20,238 nucleotides of DNA from a virus: positions 1-20,238 of the IMG/VR virus record IMGVR_UViG_3300032088_000122; one strand, written 5' to 3'. A model generated the notes under the pieces. It had not been told where the DNA came from, searched no databases, and saw only the letters and a program-made list of their open reading frames with translations. Position numbers and translations under genes: made by a program. This document shows, one piece after another, positions 3,319-19,248 of this stretch. The number at the start of each line of letters is the position of its first letter. Position 1 is the first letter of the stretch.

Positions 3319-3562
3319 ATTTCTTACGTTTGCGATTTTGCATTACTTCATCGGTATGTACCGAGTCGAAATAATCCTCAATCATTCTCAAAGCACGAAT
3401 AACATCATGTGCTTCCCCTCGCTGTTCCTCTGTTGAATCAGCGTTTACGAACACAGCAACTTGCTGATTCGTGATTTCTGTTATGACCAATTTAAACGTA
3501 TCATCAGCCTGTAATGTCTTTATCTTAGCAGATTTCTCTACAATTGAAAGTTTGTTAGCCAT
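3317..3562 (-). CDS. Small conserved protein between portal and scaffold
   Basis: 81 residues. Its start overlaps the portal stop codon (TAATG), so it is translationally coupled. It has a short beta-like N-terminal half (TFKLVITEITNQQVAVFVNA), then a helical segment (EEQRGEAHDVIRALRMIEDYFDSV) and a strongly basic tail (QNRKRKK). Small helical proteins with an EEQR-x-EAH-like segment are seen between portal and scaffold genes in other phages, but I know no assigned function. Position suggests a head-assembly accessory role, perhaps at the portal vertex; this is inference. Confidence 0.7.
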   Translation of the reverse strand: MANKLSIVEKSAKIKTLQADDTFKLVITEITNQQVAVFVNADSTEEQRGEAHDVIRALRMIEDYFDSVHTDEVMQNRKRKK

Positions 3563-5652
3563 TAGAATCTACCTCCCTCTACTGCTTTTGCAGGTGATTC
3601 TTGTGGGTATCTAGACTCTTGTTGAGCCGCTTTAATTTTTGCAGTATCTACCTGAGTGCCATATTTTCCTAATATTTCTGCTACTTTAATCATCAATTCT
3701 TGGTCTAATGCATCACGCTCTCTATCATCTACTGCAAGAGCCTTCTGAGCTTCAATTTGAAGTTTAATCATATTCATTTCTGCGGCTTTATCAGCTTTAT
3801 ACTGTTCTGCTTGTACTAGAGCCTCAGCTTCAGTAATTTCCGGAGACTGTGCCGCCATTTCTTGTTGCTGTTGAATTAACTGAGCTTCAATCTCAGGATT
3901 AATAGGTTGGAAATACCTATCGACATTTTTAACACCTTGTAAAGCTAACATATCACCTAGTGTGTTACGTATTCCAGTCATTGTAACTAAACCATTGCCA
4001 TTGCCATATTGACTCCATATCTGCATCTGCATTGTAAGAGCTTGACCTAAAGCCGCATGTCTTTCAGCTTCCTGACCTGTACCAACACCCACATTTACCT
4101 GTATATCCATAGCTGTGTTCCAAACTCTTGGGTCTACTGGTTGGAAATTGCCATGTAAGCGCATTAAGGTCTCTTCACAGCTATTTTCTACTAATATGTT
4201 GAGCATTAGCTTAAATAAACGTTTCATGCCGCCCTCGGCAATATTTCGAGCCATAACCTCTATCTGAGCTGAACCTTGTTGAGCTTGTAATCGTGCCGCA
4301 GTTGCTGAAGTGTTCTGTAATGCATCAGGGTCTAGGCCCATAGAAGCTCTAGTTACTCCAGTTTTAGCTTCGACAGCATCGTCCATGTATTGCATCGCTT
4401 GAAGAACTTGTCCTGCTACAAATGGTGTTGCAATATCTACGAGAGCCTGTGGTGACTTCATTCTAACTAATCCACCAATCTCATTGTTCATTAAATCGTC
4501 TACATTGACCTGACCTTGTACGTAACCCTGTCTAGGCGAGTTAGTTAAAGCTACGTTATCCATCATTCCTCTAAGCATAGCAGTTGAAGAGTCTTGGTCA
4601 TTCATAACTAGGTCTGCAACACTACGTCCAAAGAATGTATGTGGTTCAGGGTCTATTTCAAATACTGCAAATGGAACATCACCATAAGGCTCACACTCTA
4701 AAACTGTGTCATCTCCACCTGCCATTAGTATTTTGTACATCATAGCAACACCAGTACCTTCTTTATCCATTTTCATGTAGGCTTCAGTTACAGCTACTTT
4801 TTTCATTGAAACGTCTGCTGTTTGTTCGTCTTCTTCTTGCTCATAACCTTTACGTTCAAAATCCTCTGCATCTGAATAAGAATCATCTGAGCTTAAACCT
4901 GATAATTCTGAAATCATTTCAAAGTCATAACCCATCTCTACTAAATCACTTACACGCATTTCTGTTCTATGCGCTACAATATATGCATCCTCGATGCTCT
5001 TTGCGTTTCTATCTACTAAGAACTCTTCAGGAGGTACAGATTGCATCATTAGCTCACCATTTGATTTTGTGTGGCTTACTTTAAGTGAATGCATAGCTGA
5101 CTGTGTTTGTACACCTGTTTCATCAATTTCAATGTCTGTTTCTTCAGTATGCTCAATGACCTCTACATCTTCTTCATTGACAATAGCCGCCATTTCTTCT
5201 TCTGTTACGTTTGTGTATGTATGAATAGTGGCTGAAGTGTTCTCTTCCCACCAAATCTTTATTACACCTGTTTTTTTAACTAAAGCATCGTGTATAGCAT
5301 CGTTAAGTAACTTATAACCACTTAACTGTTGAAATTTCCAATGAGCGTATTTAGTGGCCTGTTCTGCGCCTAATACATCTTCCTGACTCGTAGGAATGTA
5401 CTCTACAGGGTTCTCTGATGATAAAAACACACGCATAAGGCTAGGTTTAATAGCTCTAATAGTGTCTCTGACCTTTGTAGAAACGATTTTTGAACGTCCA
5501 TCCTCTTGTCCTATGTCTGTCTCACCTTCAAAGTAGCGTTGAGATTTAATTCTATCGTCAGCTATTTCACTTTCAACGAATGATTTTGCGGCATCTAGAG
5601 CATCCTTAGCTATACTTTGAATTTGGTCTTCTGTCATTGGTTCTTGTTTCAT
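3562..5652 (-). CDS. Portal protein (podovirus, P22/SU10-like)
   Basis: Dodecameric DNA gate at one capsid vertex, binding terminase during packaging and the adaptor afterwards. 696 residues, the large size typical of podovirus portals. Supporting segments include RSKIVSTKVRDTIRAIKPSL with LSSENPVEYIPTS behind it (residues about 55-90), YKLLNDAIHDALVKKTGVIKIWW (about 113-135), VPPEEFLVDRNA (about 207-218), HTFFGRSVADLV followed by DQDSSTAMLRGMMDN (about 335-365) and GVTRASMGLDPDALQ (about 427-441). These are recurrent features of such portals. The last 110 residues are Gln/Glu/Ala-rich and likely form the helical barrel. The gene overlaps both neighbours by one base (TAATG), coupling it to the 881-residue protein upstream and the 81-residue protein downstream. 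Confidence 0.9.
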   Translation of the reverse strand: MKQEPMTEDQIQSIAKDALDAAKSFVESEIADDRIKSQRYFEGETDIGQEDGRSKIVSTKVRDTIRAIKPSLMRVFLSSENPVEYIPTSQEDVLGAEQATKYAHWKFQQLSGYKLLNDAIHDALVKKTGVIKIWWEENTSATIHTYTNVTEEEMAAIVNEEDVEVIEHTEETDIEIDETGVQTQSAMHSLKVSHTKSNGELMMQSVPPEEFLVDRNAKSIEDAYIVAHRTEMRVSDLVEMGYDFEMISELSGLSSDDSYSDAEDFERKGYEQEEDEQTADVSMKKVAVTEAYMKMDKEGTGVAMMYKILMAGGDDTVLECEPYGDVPFAVFEIDPEPHTFFGRSVADLVMNDQDSSTAMLRGMMDNVALTNSPRQGYVQGQVNVDDLMNNEIGGLVRMKSPQALVDIATPFVAGQVLQAMQYMDDAVEAKTGVTRASMGLDPDALQNTSATAARLQAQQGSAQIEVMARNIAEGGMKRLFKLMLNILVENSCEETLMRLHGNFQPVDPRVWNTAMDIQVNVGVGTGQEAERHAALGQALTMQMQIWSQYGNGNGLVTMTGIRNTLGDMLALQGVKNVDRYFQPINPEIEAQLIQQQQEMAAQSPEITEAEALVQAEQYKADKAAEMNMIKLQIEAQKALAVDDRERDALDQELMIKVAEILGKYGTQVDTAKIKAAQQESRYPQESPAKAVEGGRF

Positions 5653-9884: not shown

Positions 9885-10880
9885 CTAAGCCGCATTACCG
9901 GTGTAAGCGTTTGCACCTAGTGTTAGGTAATCAAACAGACCCGGTGTCTTCGTTTGTGTTACTGTATTTGGTGTATTAACAGGATTGGCATTCAATGCGC
10001 CTGTTACATAACCAAGACCCTGTGCAGGATGATTAACAAATCCTTGATATTGTTGTTGTGCCGCATCAAATAGAGCTTGTTGTAACGCTTGTTGCTGTGC
10101 GCCTTGTTGTGAAAGGTTTCTATTAACTTGTTGGCCCATTCCAAATCCAAGATTAGATAATTGACCTAATTGATTAGCCGCTCCTAACCTTTGCTGATTA
10201 CCTTGTAGACCTGCTGTTTGATTAGCTAGTGAAGCTTGTAGTTGATTAGATATATCCTGTAATCCTGCTTGTTGATTTAACTGTTGTCCTTGCATTCCTG
10301 CTGATTGATTAGCTAGACCTGCCTGTAATGCATTTTGTTGGTTTGCTAATTGTCCTTGCATGTTATTAGCTTGATTCGCCATTTGTCCTTGCATATTTAA
10401 ACCAATATCTTGCATCGCCGCATTCTGTGCGTTTTGATAACCTGCTTGTCTAAGTCCTGCTGATTGTTGACCCATCATGTCTGCTACACCTCTGCCCATC
10501 TCACTCATAGCTATACCATGTCGTGAGCCACCAAAAGCATTAGCGTGTTGAGCTTGTGTGCCTAATTGGTCAAGACCTATGTTTGCTCCTCTCAATATAT
10601 CTGCTTGTTGAGCATCAATAACTTGTGAAGTGTAAGGATTCATGTATGGAGCTAGACTTGTAGTAGCTAATTGATTAGGTGTTACATTCGTTCCTGTAAC
10701 GTTAGTTCCTGTTACATTAGTTGGAGTAACTGAAGCACTTTGACCTGCCACACCAACCTGACTTGGAGTATATCCCATGCCTAATGCAGTACCCATCCCT
10801 GCACCCTGTATGCCCTGAGCCGCTAGGCTGTTAATGTTTGGTGGAGCTGTTTGTCCGCCGGGTAGTCCTTGATTTGCCAT
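9885..10880 (-). CDS. Gln/Asn-rich hendecad-repeat virion protein (putative ejection/pilot protein)
   Basis: 331 residues, overlapping the upstream stop codon by one base (TAATG), with GAGGGGG as ribosome site. The order is: a Gly/Pro/Gln-rich N-terminus, an NVTGT pentapeptide repeat (residues 55-66), the segment LAPYMNPYTSQVIDAQQADI (76-95) seen in phage structural proteins, then a long Gln/Asn/Ala helix. Residues 163-217 are five consecutive 11-residue repeats of the form (M/L)QGQxANQxxx. Another repeat sits at 225-235 after a 7-residue break. Eleven-residue periodicity with small and hydrophobic residues at positions 1 and 5 suits a nearly straight coiled coil or helical barrel. This would fit a DNA-injection tube component, but no such function is demonstrated for this family. 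Confidence 0.7.
   Translation of the reverse strand: MANQGLPGGQTAPPNINSLAAQGIQGAGMGTALGMGYTPSQVGVAGQSASVTPTNVTGTNVTGTNVTPNQLATTSLAPYMNPYTSQVIDAQQADILRGANIGLDQLGTQAQHANAFGGSRHGIAMSEMGRGVADMMGQQSAGLRQAGYQNAQNAAMQDIGLNMQGQMANQANNMQGQLANQQNALQAGLANQSAGMQGQQLNQQAGLQDISNQLQASLANQTAGLQGNQQRLGAANQLGQLSNLGFGMGQQVNRNLSQQGAQQQALQQALFDAAQQQYQGFVNHPAQGLGYVTGALNANPVNTPNTVTQTKTPGLFDYLTLGANAYTGNAA
10230..10394 (-). repeat. 33-bp tandem repeats coding for 11-residue units
   Basis: Five consecutive 33-bp units inside the Gln/Asn-rich protein, encoding MQGQMANQANN, MQGQLANQQNA, LQAGLANQSAG, MQGQQLNQQAG and LQDISNQLQAS. The plus-strand string gtccttgcat recurs at multiples of 33 bases (ending at 10294, 10360 and 10393 or close to these). 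The units are diverged at the DNA level. Confidence 0.8.
10677..10730 (-). repeat. 15-bp coding repeat (NVTGT pentapeptides)
   Basis: Short in-frame tandem repeat giving TNVTGTNVTGTNVTP, with plus-strand units of the form gttacattagttcct and close variants. It probably forms a flexible or extended linker before the conserved APYMNPYTSQVIDA segment. Confidence 0.65.
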
Positions 10881-11548
10881 TATAACCCCCTCACTTTGCC
10901 ACTTCGGTCACGTAGTATTTTATAGCTTCCACCACTACCCATTGTCGTGCCAAAATTTGATTTCTGTTTTCGATATGCGTTGTCTGATTCACTTACTGTA
11001 CTATTTGCCGCTATTTGCTTTCCATGACTTTTCTGTAATGCCGGTGACCATGTAGAAACATCATAATTAGGTACAAATGTTGGGTCACCACTTGGGCCTC
11101 TTGAAGGTCTAAAACCTCCACCGCCTCCACCGCCTCCACCACCACGTGCTACATTAGCAGGTATAGCATTACCAAATAGGTTGTTGTATGCCGCCATGTT
11201 TGCAGGGTCTCTAGCTGTAAGTTCTGCTAAAGCTTGGTCATATAGTCCGATAGAGCCATAACCTTTAAAGCCACCGGCATATTCTGTTGGAGTAGGTGTT
11301 CCAGTTGTAGCTGATAGTGTGCTATTAGGGTCTAGCAAACCAAATGCTTTTGCCGCACCAATGTTATTGTTCATTGCCGCATTTTGTGTTTCATTGAAGG
11401 CCGCAACCTGTGGGCCTGTGTATGGCATGTATTTTAATTGCTGTACCTGTTCAGCTCTTCGTAAATTTCGCTCTGCCGGGCCTCTAACCCAATCAGGTAT
11501 CGTTGTTGCTGTTTCTTTCTTACCGCCTTTTCCGCCGCCGCTACTCAT
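10880..11548 (-). CDS. Structural protein with polyglycine linker, function unassigned
   Basis: 222 residues, starting one base after the upstream stop behind AAAGGAG. The N-terminal third contains IPDWVRGPAERNLRRAEQVQ followed by YMPYTGPQVAAFNETQNAAM (about residues 17-59), a pattern familiar from phage virion proteins next to Gln-rich ejection-type proteins. Ten consecutive glycines at 136-145 separate it from a basic C-terminal part (about 146-222, with KQKSNFGTTMGSGGSYKILRD at the end). It overlaps the Gln/Asn-rich gene by one base, and the two probably work together. The function is unknown; a role as a small partner in the internal virion complex is inferred. Confidence 0.65.
   Translation of the reverse strand: MSSGGGKGGKKETATTIPDWVRGPAERNLRRAEQVQQLKYMPYTGPQVAAFNETQNAAMNNNIGAAKAFGLLDPNSTLSATTGTPTPTEYAGGFKGYGSIGLYDQALAELTARDPANMAAYNNLFGNAIPANVARGGGGGGGGGGFRPSRGPSGDPTFVPNYDVSTWSPALQKSHGKQIAANSTVSESDNAYRKQKSNFGTTMGSGGSYKILRDRSGKVRGL
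11114..11143 (-). repeat. GGT/GGC microsatellite coding ten glycines
   Basis: The plus strand shows a run of cc(a/g)cct units from about 11114 to 11143, read on the minus strand as ten consecutive Gly codons. It is a natural flexible hinge and a likely slippage site; changes by multiples of three would keep the frame. Confidence 0.8.
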
Positions 11549-13621: not shown

Positions 13622-14908
13622 TTATGCCGCTATTTGTGTCCATGTTACTGAATCGTTAGTAATAATTTCCCATTTCTCTCTACCAATAGTAGCTGTTCCT
13701 GATGTTACACTTACAGCCGCACCACTTCTTTGTATCCTCTCACAAGATGCTGTAACTGTAGCTTCAGGTTGGGTAACTGTACTTCCTTGCCAAATTTTCT
13801 CTGAGTCTGCAACTAATGATGCAGACGGAGTACACGATGCAATTCCACCTCGTGTAGCAAATCCTAATACAGTTATACTTGCAACTGCTGTTGGTGTTCC
13901 TGAACCAAACCTTACCCTGTTACATATAGCCGCACTTGTTACTGTTGCTGTTAGCGAAGCCTCTCCTACCACAACAGTCACAGCATAAGCTGAAGTTGTG
14001 GATGTAGCAGTTACTGTCGCACTTCTTTCTCCAACTACCTGACCTGCTGTTGCAATCGTTGCTTCAGGAGTAGCTGTTGCACCACTTGTTCTTACCCTAG
14101 CACCATTTCCTGTAGTGGTTACTACAGTTGTCGAAGTTCCATCAATTAAAGCAGAACCTTCAGGTACTCTCCTAGCGACACACGTTACATTTGCAACAAC
14201 AGAGACTGTCGTTTGCAGAATGTTCTGTACTCTATTACAAGTAGCTGTAGCACTCGATGTCGCTGTTACAACTGTCTGTAGGTCTGATTGGTCATAAACC
14301 TGTTCACCATAAATACCATGTCCGTAAACCATCTTGTCCGATGCTTCAAGGAAGAACTCCTCTGCGGTACAGGTTGTAGCCGAAGCGACTGCAATCGGTA
14401 TCGTAAAGTTGAACGTACACGTTGAATTAGCTGTGATTGATGAAGCACTTGTAACAGTTGCACTTCTCTCACCAACCACTTGACCATCTGCTGTTGCACC
14501 ACTCGTAACTGTTACAGTTGCTGATGCATTACCTAAGAATCCACCTATAGCGGCGAATCCTGATGCACCTGCTGATAATGCACCTGAAAGTAGTATCCTT
14601 TCACATGATGCTGTTACAGCAGACGTAGCAGTTACTACTGTCTGTAAATCACCTTGAGTATATTCGTTCTGTCCATACAAGCCTGAACCATAGGAGAAAA
14701 CATCTGTCTCTTCTAAGATTACAACTTCACCACTACAAGTAGTAGCAGATGTAGAAGTCATGGATGCCGCCGCTCCTATCGCTACTACCCAATTTACATT
14801 GGCAATAGACGATGTTGCAGTTACTGTGGCTGAAGCATTTATAACCTCACCCACACTCGAACCATAGGTTCTTACACCATAGACCGATTCACTATATTCA
14901 AAAGCCAT
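13622..14908 (-). CDS. Ala/Thr/Val/Ser beta-repeat virion protein
   Basis: 428 residues of low-complexity, strand-forming sequence dominated by A, T, V and S. Irregular repeats of about 20 residues follow the form ATVTATSxATATCxR. Nine cysteines recur at a similar place within repeats (58, 102, 164, 180, 224, 243, 329, 359 and 389). Longer repeats are QVVGERSATVT (143-153 and 290-300) and DLQTVVTATS (87-96 and 209-218). A YGxGxYGxxxY motif occurs at 73-83 and 195-205, with a weaker form near the N-terminus (YGVRTYG). It ends in WEIITNDSVTWTQIAA. It lies between the Gp80-like and nozzle-like genes, so a tail or decoration protein with stacked beta-strands is likely. I do not recognise a named family. 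Confidence 0.65.
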   Translation of the reverse strand: MAFEYSESVYGVRTYGSSVGEVINASATVTATSSIANVNWVVAIGAAASMTSTSATTCSGEVVILEETDVFSYGSGLYGQNEYTQGDLQTVVTATSAVTASCERILLSGALSAGASGFAAIGGFLGNASATVTVTSGATADGQVVGERSATVTSASSITANSTCTFNFTIPIAVASATTCTAEEFFLEASDKMVYGHGIYGEQVYDQSDLQTVVTATSSATATCNRVQNILQTTVSVVANVTCVARRVPEGSALIDGTSTTVVTTTGNGARVRTSGATATPEATIATAGQVVGERSATVTATSTTSAYAVTVVVGEASLTATVTSAAICNRVRFGSGTPTAVASITVLGFATRGGIASCTPSASLVADSEKIWQGSTVTQPEATVTASCERIQRSGAAVSVTSGTATIGREKWEIITNDSVTWTQIAA

Positions 14909-15930: not shown

Positions 15931-16719
15931 TTAGTACCCCAATCTATATTGGTTTTGTACTTCGTATCCACCGGCATCAATATTACCATTCATCATCCCA
16001 TTTATGAATACTTTCTGTTGCTCCTGATTCATACTCTGTAATATCATTTGAACTTTTTGTTGTTCTTGTGGGTCTAAATTAGCCATTATCTCGCCTATGC
16101 TGTGTCTCAAGGCAGGTGTCTCAAGACCCTGTGGGTTAGTAGGACTTGCAAATCCACCTGTGAAGTCTGACTGTAAGTCTGTTTGATATTGACCAAAGCC
16201 TAAGTTATCGCTTCCTCCACCAGTATTAGCTGTAATGTTGTTGCGGTCTCTGAACTGTGCCATTCCTACTTCACCTAAACCATCACCAGTAAAGTTGTAA
16301 CCATAATCTTTCCCATCAATACCAAGTGTGTACTCATTACCCATACCCTGACCCATGTTCATCATATAGTCTCTGTATGCAGGTGTTCCCGGTAGAAGTC
16401 CTCCGGTGGCGGCCTGAGCGGCATCACGTGTTGCTAATGTCTTTCCAATATCCGTTTGGTACTCCTCACCAGTATTAGTTGTAACAGCTCCCGGTAAGAA
16501 GTCATCTATAACCTGAGCGGCATCTCTAGATGCTTTTCCATACTCATCAAATTGTTTCTTTAACCATGGCCCTGCACCCAAAATACCTTCGATAAATGAG
16601 CCTTCCCTATCTTCAGGAGTATCAAGACCACTTAATAATGAACCTCCTTGTACTCCTTCTGCAATCGAAGCTTTGCCTAATAACTCAGCAATGATTTGTT
16701 TTATTCTTTCCTCATCCAT
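15931..16719 (-). CDS. Unassigned virion-region protein, 262 residues
   Basis: Starts at ATG 16719 behind CAGGAG. The N-terminal 30 residues are helical (DEERIKQIIAELLGKASIAE). The middle (about 110-200) is rich in Gly, Asn, Asp, Tyr and Gln and looks poorly folded or loop-like (GKDYGYNFTGDGLGEVGMAQ). The C-terminal 60 residues are Gln/Met-rich and helical (DPQEQQKVQMILQSMNQEQQ). Similar composition occurs in small structural or ejection proteins, but I recognise no family. It stands alone after the 829-residue protein with a 39-base spacer and before the adaptor. Confidence 0.6.
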   Translation of the reverse strand: MDEERIKQIIAELLGKASIAEGVQGGSLLSGLDTPEDREGSFIEGILGAGPWLKKQFDEYGKASRDAAQVIDDFLPGAVTTNTGEEYQTDIGKTLATRDAAQAATGGLLPGTPAYRDYMMNMGQGMGNEYTLGIDGKDYGYNFTGDGLGEVGMAQFRDRNNITANTGGGSDNLGFGQYQTDLQSDFTGGFASPTNPQGLETPALRHSIGEIMANLDPQEQQKVQMILQSMNQEQQKVFINGMMNGNIDAGGYEVQNQYRLGY

Positions 16720-16758: not shown

Positions 16759-19248
16759 TTAATTGAATAATCCTTGTTTTTCCATCCGCATCAACATTTC
16801 ATGAGAGATTAATCCCATGTGGTTTGATGTATTAATTTGTCTAGTCTCATTTGGTAGTAACCCTTCTCTTGTAATTCTCTGTCCTGCTCGTTGACCACCT
16901 GATGCAATAATAGGATTTAAGTCTGAGATGTGTAGGTCATGACTTAATATACCAACTGGTGCGCCGGGCAATGATGAATCATAGCTTGTGTGTCTCCTTG
17001 CGTGGTCTGTGCTATTCAATTCAATCTGTCCTACATTTTGTAGTGTACCCTCTTGTTTGTTTAATTGCCTGTGGTCTGTGTTTGCTAGTCTAGCTTTTGT
17101 CCATGATAAGACACCATTGTCTGCACCTTTAGTATAGATACCTGCACCATCTCTGAAGTTAACATCAATAATTCTTGCAATAGCTTTGCGCTCTGCACCA
17201 TTTGAACCGAGTAATGGATTCTCTGCATCTATGCCTTTCCACTTCTGATTAATGTTCTTGCCTGTCTCTAAATCCTTAGATTGAGTCCTAATCATTTTGT
17301 CTAGCTTGGTCTTCTGAGACCTGTTTAATCCTTGTAATGCTGACTGCAACATTGAATCTACTACTTGGTGACTGAAGTCTAAGCCAGTAGGAGACATTCT
17401 AAATGGTAAATAGATTGGGTCTTTGCCATACATTTGTTTAGCTTCACCGGCCTGTCGTATGATTGAACTAATAGCATCTCTGTGTGAGGCCCATAGAACA
17501 CCTCTGTCTACGTTCTCCGGGATAATCATAAAGTCCTGTCCACCTTCTAGCTTCACCGGGTTAGGAAACTTAGTGCCATTAACGTGTGTCAAGTATCCAC
17601 CTGCACGAGATAAGTCTGCGTAAGTAGCTACATATGGGAAGCCTTCAAGGTTTCTGAGGTCAATGTCAGGAATAATAATGTTGTTCTCACCCTTGACTAT
17701 CGTACCACCTTTATCAAATGTACCTTCAGCTAAAGCTCTCTGCTCTGTTACTCTGTTGCTTAATCTAACAGAACCTTCATCTAGTGGCAGAGTAAGTATA
17801 CCTTGTTCAACACCTGCGGCTGTTTGTGTGTTCTTATCTATGTCTATGTCCTGACGTTTTAATATCTTAGTAGTGTCATCGCTGTACAAGACGTAGTTAC
17901 GAGGATTTCCTGCATCCTGTCCTGCGGCAAGATTACGTGCTGATGTGAACCTATCTGTGAATGACATACCTTTAATACCTAAGCTATTGAGATGTAGTGA
18001 TGCGGCCTTTTGAGACCTTCTTAGCAGGTCAAACATACTCAATCCCGGAGAACGTCCAACAATTGCAGGTTGGTTCATATCCATAGCATTCCTAACTAAT
18101 TCATCATAAAGGGTCTGCCCGGTAGCATCATCTCCTAACCCAAGTCTCTCCATTTCCTTTTGAACCATTGGGTTTTGGTCTGCCTTCTTAGCCTCACGAT
18201 TAATGAATGTCTTGATTGCATCGTCACTTAAATCAATCTCATACAGTTGGTTATCTGCTGTATCGAATCTACCTTCAATCTCATAGAGAGCTTTGTTAGC
18301 TTTGGCAATGTCAGCAGGGTCTGTTAAATTAGCTATAACGTCAGCTCGGATTGTGTCCGGGTAATAACCACTAGCGGCCCTGTCTAATATCTCTTTAATA
18401 AGTGGGTCTTTTTCTAACTTCATAAGCTCATCGAACTCGTCAAGCATGTCGGCATCATGTCTTGCATATCGCTTACCTTCATGCTTAGTTCCACTAACGT
18501 ATTGACCCCAACCTTGAACCATTGTGCCTGAGTTAGAACCTATAGCATCCATGTCTAATTGTCTGAAGATTGCACCTCTGTTGTTACCTTGCCAAGTAAT
18601 GAGTGGTGACTGCATTCCGTAATGACCTTGATTAGCGGCGGCTACTATGCCATTCATCTCATTCATGAACTTAGCTTGTACAGCAGGATTAGTTGCTACT
18701 TTGGTTAGAGCTTTAACCCCAAACCCTGCACCAACTGCCATAGATATTATCTCAGCCGGGTTCTTCCTAAACTCTTCCTTGAATCCTTCCCATGAACCAA
18801 ACGTGTCTGTAAGATATGAACCAAACTGATTAGCCATCTCACGTTGTTCAACACCTACATCCTCACTAAGCAATCCACCTACTGGTGTTAAATTAAGTAC
18901 ACCACCTGCTAATAAACTAGCTATAGCTTCAGTTGATGGGCCGGGATTGGTAGCCATGTATGCTCCATCTCGATACATTTGTCCGATGCTTTCAGGTAGA
19001 TTCTGTAACCAGTTGCCACTTCTCTCATCGTTGCCTTCACCCCAACCGAGTGCCTGAAAGAATGGACTTTGCGCTCTACTCTCATAGATTTCTGCATCTC
19101 TTGCATCTCTCCTTGCTTGAAGCTCAGGGTCAACATCCAATATACCAGTAAAGAACTTAGAGACACCTCCCCAAGCATTACTGAGTAGTCCATCTAATTT
19201 AACAGGGTCTTTGTCATCCTGATTGAGTAAGCCTTGATGTAGTCTCAT
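16759..19248 (-). CDS. Large protein with ADP-ribosyltransferase-like (ART-PolyVal type) domain
   Basis: 829 residues; ATG 19248 overlaps the upstream stop as ATGA. Residues 1-210 are partly helical and include a Gly/Ala hydrophobic region (about 105-185). Residues about 215-465 match the layout of the ART-PolyVal ADP-ribosyltransferase type: TWQGNNRGAIFRQLDMDAIG (218-237, where HGT is usual), GWGQY with a later Tyr (246-261), LYEIDLSDDAI (335-345), ASLHLNSLGIKGMSF (416-430) and NYVLYSDDTTKI (451-462). The expected His is replaced by Gln220, so NAD binding may be altered. Residues about 525-780 resemble a second domain that accompanies such domains in other phage proteins (EGFPYVATYADLSRAGGYLT, then PIYLPFRMSPTGLDFSHQVV, QNVGQIEL). 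Such proteins can travel in the virion and act in the host; here this is inference. Confidence 0.65.
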   Translation of the reverse strand: MRLHQGLLNQDDKDPVKLDGLLSNAWGGVSKFFTGILDVDPELQARRDARDAEIYESRAQSPFFQALGWGEGNDERSGNWLQNLPESIGQMYRDGAYMATNPGPSTEAIASLLAGGVLNLTPVGGLLSEDVGVEQREMANQFGSYLTDTFGSWEGFKEEFRKNPAEIISMAVGAGFGVKALTKVATNPAVQAKFMNEMNGIVAAANQGHYGMQSPLITWQGNNRGAIFRQLDMDAIGSNSGTMVQGWGQYVSGTKHEGKRYARHDADMLDEFDELMKLEKDPLIKEILDRAASGYYPDTIRADVIANLTDPADIAKANKALYEIEGRFDTADNQLYEIDLSDDAIKTFINREAKKADQNPMVQKEMERLGLGDDATGQTLYDELVRNAMDMNQPAIVGRSPGLSMFDLLRRSQKAASLHLNSLGIKGMSFTDRFTSARNLAAGQDAGNPRNYVLYSDDTTKILKRQDIDIDKNTQTAAGVEQGILTLPLDEGSVRLSNRVTEQRALAEGTFDKGGTIVKGENNIIIPDIDLRNLEGFPYVATYADLSRAGGYLTHVNGTKFPNPVKLEGGQDFMIIPENVDRGVLWASHRDAISSIIRQAGEAKQMYGKDPIYLPFRMSPTGLDFSHQVVDSMLQSALQGLNRSQKTKLDKMIRTQSKDLETGKNINQKWKGIDAENPLLGSNGAERKAIARIIDVNFRDGAGIYTKGADNGVLSWTKARLANTDHRQLNKQEGTLQNVGQIELNSTDHARRHTSYDSSLPGAPVGILSHDLHISDLNPIIASGGQRAGQRITREGLLPNETRQINTSNHMGLISHEMLMRMEKQGLFN

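What the first reader, a model, noticed from the sequence alone, without database searches (positions are those of the whole stretch)
17854..18606. Diverged ADP-ribosyltransferase-like domain in a virion-cluster protein, with apparent His-to-Gln change
Residues 215-465 of the 829-residue protein follow the ART-PolyVal layout (a WQGN segment in place of the HGT motif, GWGQY, a later Tyr, GIKGMSF, NYVLYSDD), yet the first motif reads Gln220-Gly221 rather than His-Gly-Thr. The gene sits between terminase and the adaptor. In other phages polyvalent proteins with such domains are injected with DNA to modify host targets. Either this is a delivered effector with altered chemistry, or a fold reused structurally after losing catalysis. 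The alignment is by eye from family knowledge.
Basis: partly seen in the sequence, partly recalled or inferred. Interest (0 to 1): 0.72.

Follow-up and report, generated by a model that had tools for sequence, protein, structure and literature searches.

The report
Phage virion-region protein with pseudo-ADP-ribosyltransferase
A short-tailed phage carries, among its particle genes, a protein with a domain that clearly descends from ADP-ribosyltransferase enzymes but has lost nearly all of the enzyme's active-site signature, so it is more likely a binding or building part than a working host-modifying enzyme.

Summary
Residues about 227-467 of the 829-aa protein (window 17848-18606, minus strand) are homologous to phage ART-PolyVal-type ADP-ribosyltransferases. 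A profile of 82 relatives scores it 44 bits, against 5.6 for the best of 500 shuffles. Profile-profile probability is 98.9%, and a predicted model matches solved ARTs. Stock Pfam and PHROGs miss it.

The catalytic loss goes beyond His-to-Gln. The family H-G-S/T motif (82/82) reads Q-G-N, G-T-G-E-G-A-Q reads G-S-N-S-G-T-M, and the usual strand-5 Asp is Ser. In one close relative the Tyr is Phe and the next Asp is Asn. The H-Y-D signature thus becomes Q-Y/F-S, much like human PARP9 (Q-Y-T, inactive). Gln alone is not decisive: three other phage ARTs carry Q-G with everything else intact.

The domain is inserted before a second, unnamed domain (residues 468-829). That domain occurs in over 100 viral ORFs, nearly all without an ART. 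The reading frame is intact and dN/dS is about 0.5.

Best reading: a catalytically dead ART kept as a binding or structural module in a protein of the virion gene cluster that is probably packaged and ejected. Catalysis, packaging and ejection were not tested experimentally. This is a new variant of a known kind.

The parts
16759..19248 (-). 829-aa polyvalent-type protein: N-terminal region + pseudo-ART + unnamed C-terminal domain
   Evidence: ORF; intact in relatives L004/L114-L116, L007, L008
18607..19248 (-). N-terminal region, residues 1-214, with two moderately hydrophobic stretches (about 105-127 and 164-185)
   Evidence: hydropathy maximum 1.64; no family match; no detectable homology to the N-termini of proteins that carry only the C-terminal domain
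17848..18606 (-). pseudo-ADP-ribosyltransferase domain, residues 215-467 (certain homology from about residue 227)
18583..18594 (-). W-Q-G-N, residues 219-222, in place of Y-H-G-S/T
   Evidence: column 220 is H in 82/82 family members, Q in all window-clade members
18520..18540 (-). G-S-N-S-G-T-M, residues 237-243, in place of G-T-G-E-G-A-Q
18499..18513 (-). G-W-G-Q-Y, residues 246-250; Tyr250 is Phe in relative L008
17959..17979 (-). GIKGMSF, residues 424-430, strand before the last catalytic strand
17875..17898 (-). NYVLYSDD, residues 451-458, strand 5; usual Asp is Ser456; Asp457 is Asn in L008
16762..17847 (-). C-terminal domain, residues 468-829, unnamed family also found as about 435-aa stand-alone phage proteins
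19454..20236 (-). terminase large subunit (C-terminal part, runs off the window)
15931..16719 (-). 262-aa gene of unknown function that follows the 829-aa gene; a 273-aa gene stands at the same place in relative L114
15302..15928 (-). SU10-type head-tail adaptor
   Evidence: PF24175 E 2.3e-38
3562..5652 (-). portal protein (places the phage among SU10/LUZ24-like podoviruses)
   Evidence: PF23899 E 3.9e-189; best phage match Octadecabacter Antarctic DB virus 2, 43%

Best explanation
The gene encodes a polyvalent-type protein of the head/packaging gene cluster of a short-tailed phage. A phage ART domain was inserted upstream of a conserved virion-region domain (residues 468-829). In this lineage the ART then lost its NAD-binding and catalytic signature (H-G-S/T to Q-G-N, G-T-G-E-G-A-Q to G-S-N-S-G-T-M, Asp to Ser; Tyr to Phe in one member). 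It most likely no longer transfers ADP-ribose and is kept as a non-catalytic protein-binding or structural module, in a protein that is probably packaged and ejected with the DNA. Shown: homology, motif loss, intact reading frame, purifying selection, gene position. Inferred: lack of catalysis, packaging, ejection, and the binding role.
For: Homology; fold: BFVD matches to ART-PolyVal-like proteins and solved ARTs among the top VIA rows. Motif columns in 82 family members against the window clade; conserved loss across clade members and Tyr to Phe in L008. PARP9 (Q-Y-T) and PARP13 lack the His essential for NAD binding and are inactive (PMC9189837). H20A/Y46A and D146A/E147A abolish AcrIF11 activity (PMC12421852). 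dN/dS about 0.45-0.50 in the ART and 0.24-0.34 in the C-terminal domain, no stops. Virion-cluster position. The ART is absent from nearly all C-terminal-domain proteins and a gene of this size is absent from this place in the nearest cultured relative. An ART-like segment lies in a cyanophage ejectosome protein.
Against: Gln at the His column also occurs in three ARTs that are otherwise intact (L275, L284, L292), so Gln may be tolerated. The strand-5 Asp is not strict in the family (D67, N7, S4 of 82). Tyr250 is retained in the window itself. The AF2 model is weak exactly at residues 208-228 (pLDDT below 50), so pocket geometry is unknown. No proteomics show that the protein is in the particle.
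Confidence: 0.6

Rival explanations
1. Delivered non-catalytic effector or decoy: the pseudo-ART is injected and acts in the host by binding the target, or the defence ART, that its active ancestor recognised.
For: Polyvalent proteins are argued to be injected (PMC5512222). The recognition surface could survive loss of the pocket. The helical insert (266-330) evolves at dN/dS 0.30 between the window and L004, like the rest of the protein. PARP9 works as a catalytically dead partner.
Against: No target, no host and no proof of ejection. It cannot be told apart from the structural version of the best explanation by sequence.
Confidence: 0.2
2. Active ART with altered chemistry: Gln replaces His, and a shifted acid (Asp457 or Asp458) or substrate-assisted catalysis replaces the Asp.
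For: Three phage ARTs with Q-G and otherwise intact motifs suggest Gln can be compatible with a working site. Asp458 is invariant in the clade. Mono-PARPs work without the third-position acid.
Against: The S/T after H-G and the G-E-G-A-Q loop are also lost. Tyr becomes Phe and Asp457 becomes Asn in L008. PARP9 with the same His-to-Gln is classed inactive.
Confidence: 0.12
3. Decaying passenger: the ART insertion has no present function and is eroding.
For: The ART region evolves faster than the rest (dN/dS about 0.5 against about 0.3; 75-81% against 89-93% aa identity). Nearly all homologous C-terminal-domain proteins lack it.
Against: The frame is intact in all sampled members, dN/dS is still below 1, the core fold-defining glycines and strands are conserved, and the lost motif residues are fixed as Q, G, N, S and not random.
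Confidence: 0.08

Closest known systems
ART-PolyVal (PF18760; Tox-ART-HYD2 clade) in phage polyvalent proteins, e.g. Tunturiibacter phage Tunturi_5 gp273 and Sulfitobacter phage phiGT1 gp5
   Same: Same domain layout with a long helical insert, GxG...GWGxY, YE strand, GIxGIKY, NYVVFDD; the gene sits among head genes in phiGT1
   Different: H-G-S/T, G-E-G-A-Q and Asp are present in those and lost here; scores no PF18760 hit
Human PARP9 (Q-Y-T) and PARP13 (Y-Y-V)
   Same: ART-superfamily domains whose catalytic His is lost (to Gln in PARP9); regarded as inactive and working through partners (PMC9189837, PMC10789625)
   Different: Eukaryotic PARP-type with macrodomains; no direct relationship shown here; different biology
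AcrIF11 (6KYF, 8DWQ), phage ART anti-CRISPR
   Same: VIA structural match over most of the domain (Z 4.8 and 4.5)
   Different: Active enzyme with His, Tyr and Asp/Glu needed (PMC12421852); made in the host, not part of a virion-cluster protein
Cyanophage A4 pre-ejectosome chain (9k3a_B; probably Anabaena phage A-4L ORF27L)
   Same: Best structural match (Z 10.0, 161 residues); an ART-like segment inside a podophage ejection-apparatus protein
   Different: Its sequence keeps YHGT...GTYF and it has no sequence match to this family profile
C-terminal-domain proteins: Phage C72C1 gp23 and the phage ct7L0027 'type I restriction enzyme' protein
   Same: Share residues about 528-692 and beyond; C72C1 gp23 sits between TerL and portal
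   Different: No ART domain; ct7L0027 has an inorganic pyrophosphatase domain instead
T4 Alt
   Same: Precedent for an ART packaged in the head and injected (PMC5512222)
   Different: R-S-E clade ART, active, T4-like myovirus

Membership tests
Pfam ART-PolyVal (PF18760) | score above the curated cut-off of 31.2 bits | tested here: not met
   no match even at E 1
Phage ART-PolyVal-like homologous superfamily (profile of 82 members) | significant sequence-profile homology over the domain | tested here: met
   44.1 bits against shuffle maximum 5.6; hhalign 98.85%, E 4e-17
Tox-ART-HYD2 clade | His in strand 1 (H-G-S/T) | tested here: not met
   Q-G-N in all clade members; H in 82/82 of the family; the pairing of this motif depends on global alignment
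Tox-ART-HYD2 clade | Tyr in strand 2 | tested here: met
   Tyr250 in the window, but Phe in L008
Tox-ART-HYD2 clade | Asp in strand 5 | tested here: not met
   Ser456; the family has D67/N7/S4/R2/P1
ART fold (split beta-sandwich) | predicted fold matches solved ARTs | tested here: met
   VIA: 9k3a_B Z 10.0, 6kyf 4.8, 8dwq 4.5, 9g7n 4.5, all spanning the domain; BFVD 16 hits at E up to 1e-3. Caveats: plain Foldseek on PDB found none, beta-1 is low confidence, and the model used an MSA of ARTs
Polyvalent protein | several unrelated domains in one polypeptide encoded among virion genes | tested here: met
   ART-like domain plus unnamed C-terminal domain between TerL and adaptor
Polyvalent protein | packaged in the virion and injected | not testable with these tools
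   needs proteomics and an ejection assay
Active ADP-ribosyltransferase | NAD binding and ADP-ribose transfer | not testable with these tools
   sequence argues against it

The most novel reading that the evidence does not exclude
Phages have repeatedly turned injected ARTs into catalytically dead 'pseudo-ARTs' (a Q-Y-S/T state convergent with PARP9) that work after ejection by binding host proteins, for instance by blocking or titrating host ART-based or NAD-dependent defences.
Probability: 0.12. Interest if true: 0.8.

Novelty: new variant of a known kind. Interest (0 to 1): 0.45.

Why it matters
ARTs are the commonest predicted protein-modifying domains in phage polyvalent proteins and are assumed to be injected enzymes. 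A virion-cluster lineage that keeps the fold under selection after losing the NAD signature would show that annotation by fold overstates activity. It gives a natural dead/active pair (this protein and phiGT1 gp5) for asking what the ART fold does besides catalysis. The parallel with PARP9 (Q-Y-T), and the otherwise intact Q-G phage ARTs, make it testable whether Gln can replace the His at all.

Tried and rejected
Pfam, PHROGs and PDB sequence searches of the window protein: no match. Plain Foldseek on PDB: no hit with E below 1; an ART hit appeared only in the VIA realignment and in BFVD. PDB profile search with A4 gave only low-complexity helical matches such as gp41 constructs, rejected. 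AF2 of the C-terminal domain failed (pLDDT 37), so no fold is proposed for it. Homology of the N-terminal region with the N-termini of the C-terminal-domain proteins was tested and not found. No relative in genome contigs. A tree of ART domains places the three clade members together (support 1.0) on a long branch, with no reliable sister. The idea that His-to-Gln alone proves inactivity was rejected after natural Q-G variants with intact motifs turned up. The profile sample was chosen by patterns that include the GEGAQ and G.G.YF motifs, so invariance in those columns is partly by selection. The His column was not in the patterns, and a second sample chosen on the C-terminal half gave the same picture (133 H, 3 clear Q, 2 other of 138 distinct cores pooled).

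Full report
What was checked. The finding's coordinates 17854-18606 on the minus strand are residues 215-465 of an 829-codon ORF, 16759-19248. Upstream are a 70-aa gene and the terminase large subunit. Downstream are a 262-aa gene of unknown function and then the SU10-type adaptor. The phage is a podovirus of the SU10/LUZ24-like portal and capsid type. The closest portal in a phage with a known host is that of Octadecabacter Antarctic DB virus 2 (43%). Its gene table shows only two small genes (gp4, gp5) between terminase and the next structural gene, so it lacks a gene of this size there. The window is a 20 kb virus record with no host given.

Is it an ADP-ribosyltransferase relative? Stock libraries do not say so: no Pfam, PHROGs or PDB sequence match. 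A direct search of phage genomes found one polyvalent protein, Tunturiibacter phage Tunturi_5 gp273, at E 2e-3 over residues 236-476. Pfam marks ART-PolyVal domains in that protein. From that seed, intact relatives were collected and then 80 more from viral contigs. A profile of 82 of these, excluding the window clade, scores the window protein at 44.1 bits; the best of 500 shuffled copies reaches 5.6. Profile-profile comparison gives 98.85% probability and E 4e-17 over 213 columns. An AF2 model of the domain, made with 70 aligned sequences, has mean pLDDT 74. It matches 16 viral models at E up to 1e-3, several named ART-PolyVal-like. Plain Foldseek against PDB finds nothing. The VIA realignment ranks first a chain of the cyanophage A4 pre-ejectosome (9k3a_B, Z 10.0, rmsd 4.7, 161 residues). 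It also places AcrIF11 (6kyf Z 4.8; 8dwq Z 4.5) and the catalytic end of a PE-like toxin (9g7n Z 4.5) among the top eight rows, each spanning the model. The identity of 6kyf and 8dwq as AcrIF11 is from PMC12421852. Because the model was built from ART sequences, the fold evidence is supportive, not independent proof. The sequence evidence stands alone.

What has been lost. In the 82-member alignment the His column is H in all 82; the window, L004 and L008 all read Q. The following Gly is kept. The S/T after it is N. The loop G-T-G-E-G-A-Q reads G-S-N-S-G-T-M. The Tyr column is Y in all 82, and Y, Y, F in the clade. The strand-5 Asp column is D 67, N 7, S 4, R 2, P 1, and S in the clade; the next residue is D, D, N. 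All six clade sequences examined agree on Q, G, N and S. The H-Y-D configuration that defines the family (PMC5512222) is therefore Q-(Y/F)-S here. Caution on pairing: local alignments begin after the motif, at about residue 227, and only global or relaxed alignment pairs WQGN with YHGS, through a two-residue insertion. AF2 has no confidence at residues 208-228. The absence of any H-G dipeptide in that stretch does not depend on the pairing. The sampling used patterns in the GEGAQ and G.G.YF motifs, so the invariance of those columns is partly by selection; the His and Asp columns were not in the patterns.

How unusual is Gln? A second sample was drawn with patterns from the C-terminal half only. 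Pooled over all loci, 138 distinct ART cores with a recognisable GxGEG core include 133 with His, three clear Q-G (L275, L284, L292) and two unclassified. The three Q-G cases keep G-T/S-G-E-G-A-Q, the Tyr and NYVVFD. Gln alone is thus a recurrent natural variant and does not by itself show loss of activity. What sets the window clade apart is the simultaneous loss of the neighbouring signature. The literature supports caution in both directions. PARP9 (Q-Y-T) and PARP13 (Y-Y-V) lack the His needed for NAD binding and are classed inactive (PMC9189837), and H20A/Y46A or D146A/E147A abolish AcrIF11 activity (PMC12421852). But pseudoenzyme status is hard to establish with certainty (PMC10789625).

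The rest of the protein. Residues 468-829 belong to an unnamed family with no Pfam or PHROGs match in the window protein. It was first seen in Phage C72C1 gp23 and in a ct7L0027 protein that carries an inorganic pyrophosphatase. A search with an alignment found many more. Of 109 ORFs with this domain in the fetched loci, only the window-clade copies and L155 also carry an ART. Most others are about 435 aa long and lack one, and in L129 the gene lies upstream of terminase and portal. The simplest history is insertion of an ART into a head-region protein, at least twice, followed by loss of the catalytic signature in the window clade (inference). L155 is cut off at its 5' end, so its His motif cannot be read.

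Selection. The frame is open in all members. dN/dS is 0.45-0.50 in the ART and 0.24-0.34 in the C-terminal domain; amino-acid identity is 75-81% against 89-93%. The ART evolves faster than its neighbour but under constraint.

How it most likely works. Commitment: a non-catalytic ART used as a binding or structural module in a protein that is probably packaged and ejected. Shown here: ancestry, motif loss, constraint, position. Inferred: inactivity, packaging, ejection, binding role. Precedents: polyvalent proteins lie near virion genes and are argued to be packaged and injected (PMC5512222). A podophage ejectosome protein carries an ART-like segment, since residues 1418-1611 of the matched chain correspond to YHGT...GTYF in Anabaena phage A-4L ORF27L. 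The equation of that chain with ORF27L is my inference from the residue numbering.

Verdict. It is a new variant of a known kind, of moderate interest. The interest lies in a clean natural dead/active comparison and the PARP9-like triad, not in a new system.

Noticed in passing
L275, L284, L292 (viral contigs): Otherwise intact ART-PolyVal-type domains with Y-Q-G-S or Y-Q-G-G in place of Y-H-G-S: natural His-to-Gln variants that keep GEGAQ, Tyr and Asp.
   Followed up: partly
window 16762-17847 (-): C-terminal domain of the 829-aa protein is an unnamed phage family (DRTxxG, LTxIxG, GGxDFM, DFS/DSSH motifs) with over 100 members in viral contigs and no Pfam or PHROGs name.
   Followed up: partly
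L155:1-1674 and L203-L206: ARTs in which strand 5 reads NFVVFPGEEQ in place of NYVVFDD; L155 is also fused to the unnamed C-terminal domain but is cut at its 5' end.
   Followed up: no
L213 20116-25269 (-), Anabaena phage A-4L ORF27L residues 1418-1611: An ART-like segment (YHGT...GTYF...VINPD) in an annotated 'tail protein' that appears to be part of the cyanophage A4 pre-ejectosome structure 9k3a.
   Followed up: partly
window 9885-11548 (-): Two adjacent genes (331 and 222 aa) match different parts of one 392-position DNA-ejection-protein family (phrog_4287), as if that protein were split in two here.
   Followed up: no
window 13622-14908 (-): 428-aa protein made largely of Ala/Thr/Ser-rich VTATSS-like repeats with recurring YG.G.YG segments, no family match.
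   Followed up: no
L103:3-2078 (+): Upstream of a C-terminal-domain gene lies an ORF with at least two further ART-like segments (ELYHGN..., LWHGTP...), a cluster of polyvalent domains.
   Followed up: no
L129:1448-2278 (+): A beta-glucosyl-HMC-alpha-glucosyltransferase-like gene (phrog_842, E 2.8e-45) a few kb before terminase and portal, hinting at modified DNA in that phage.
   Followed up: no
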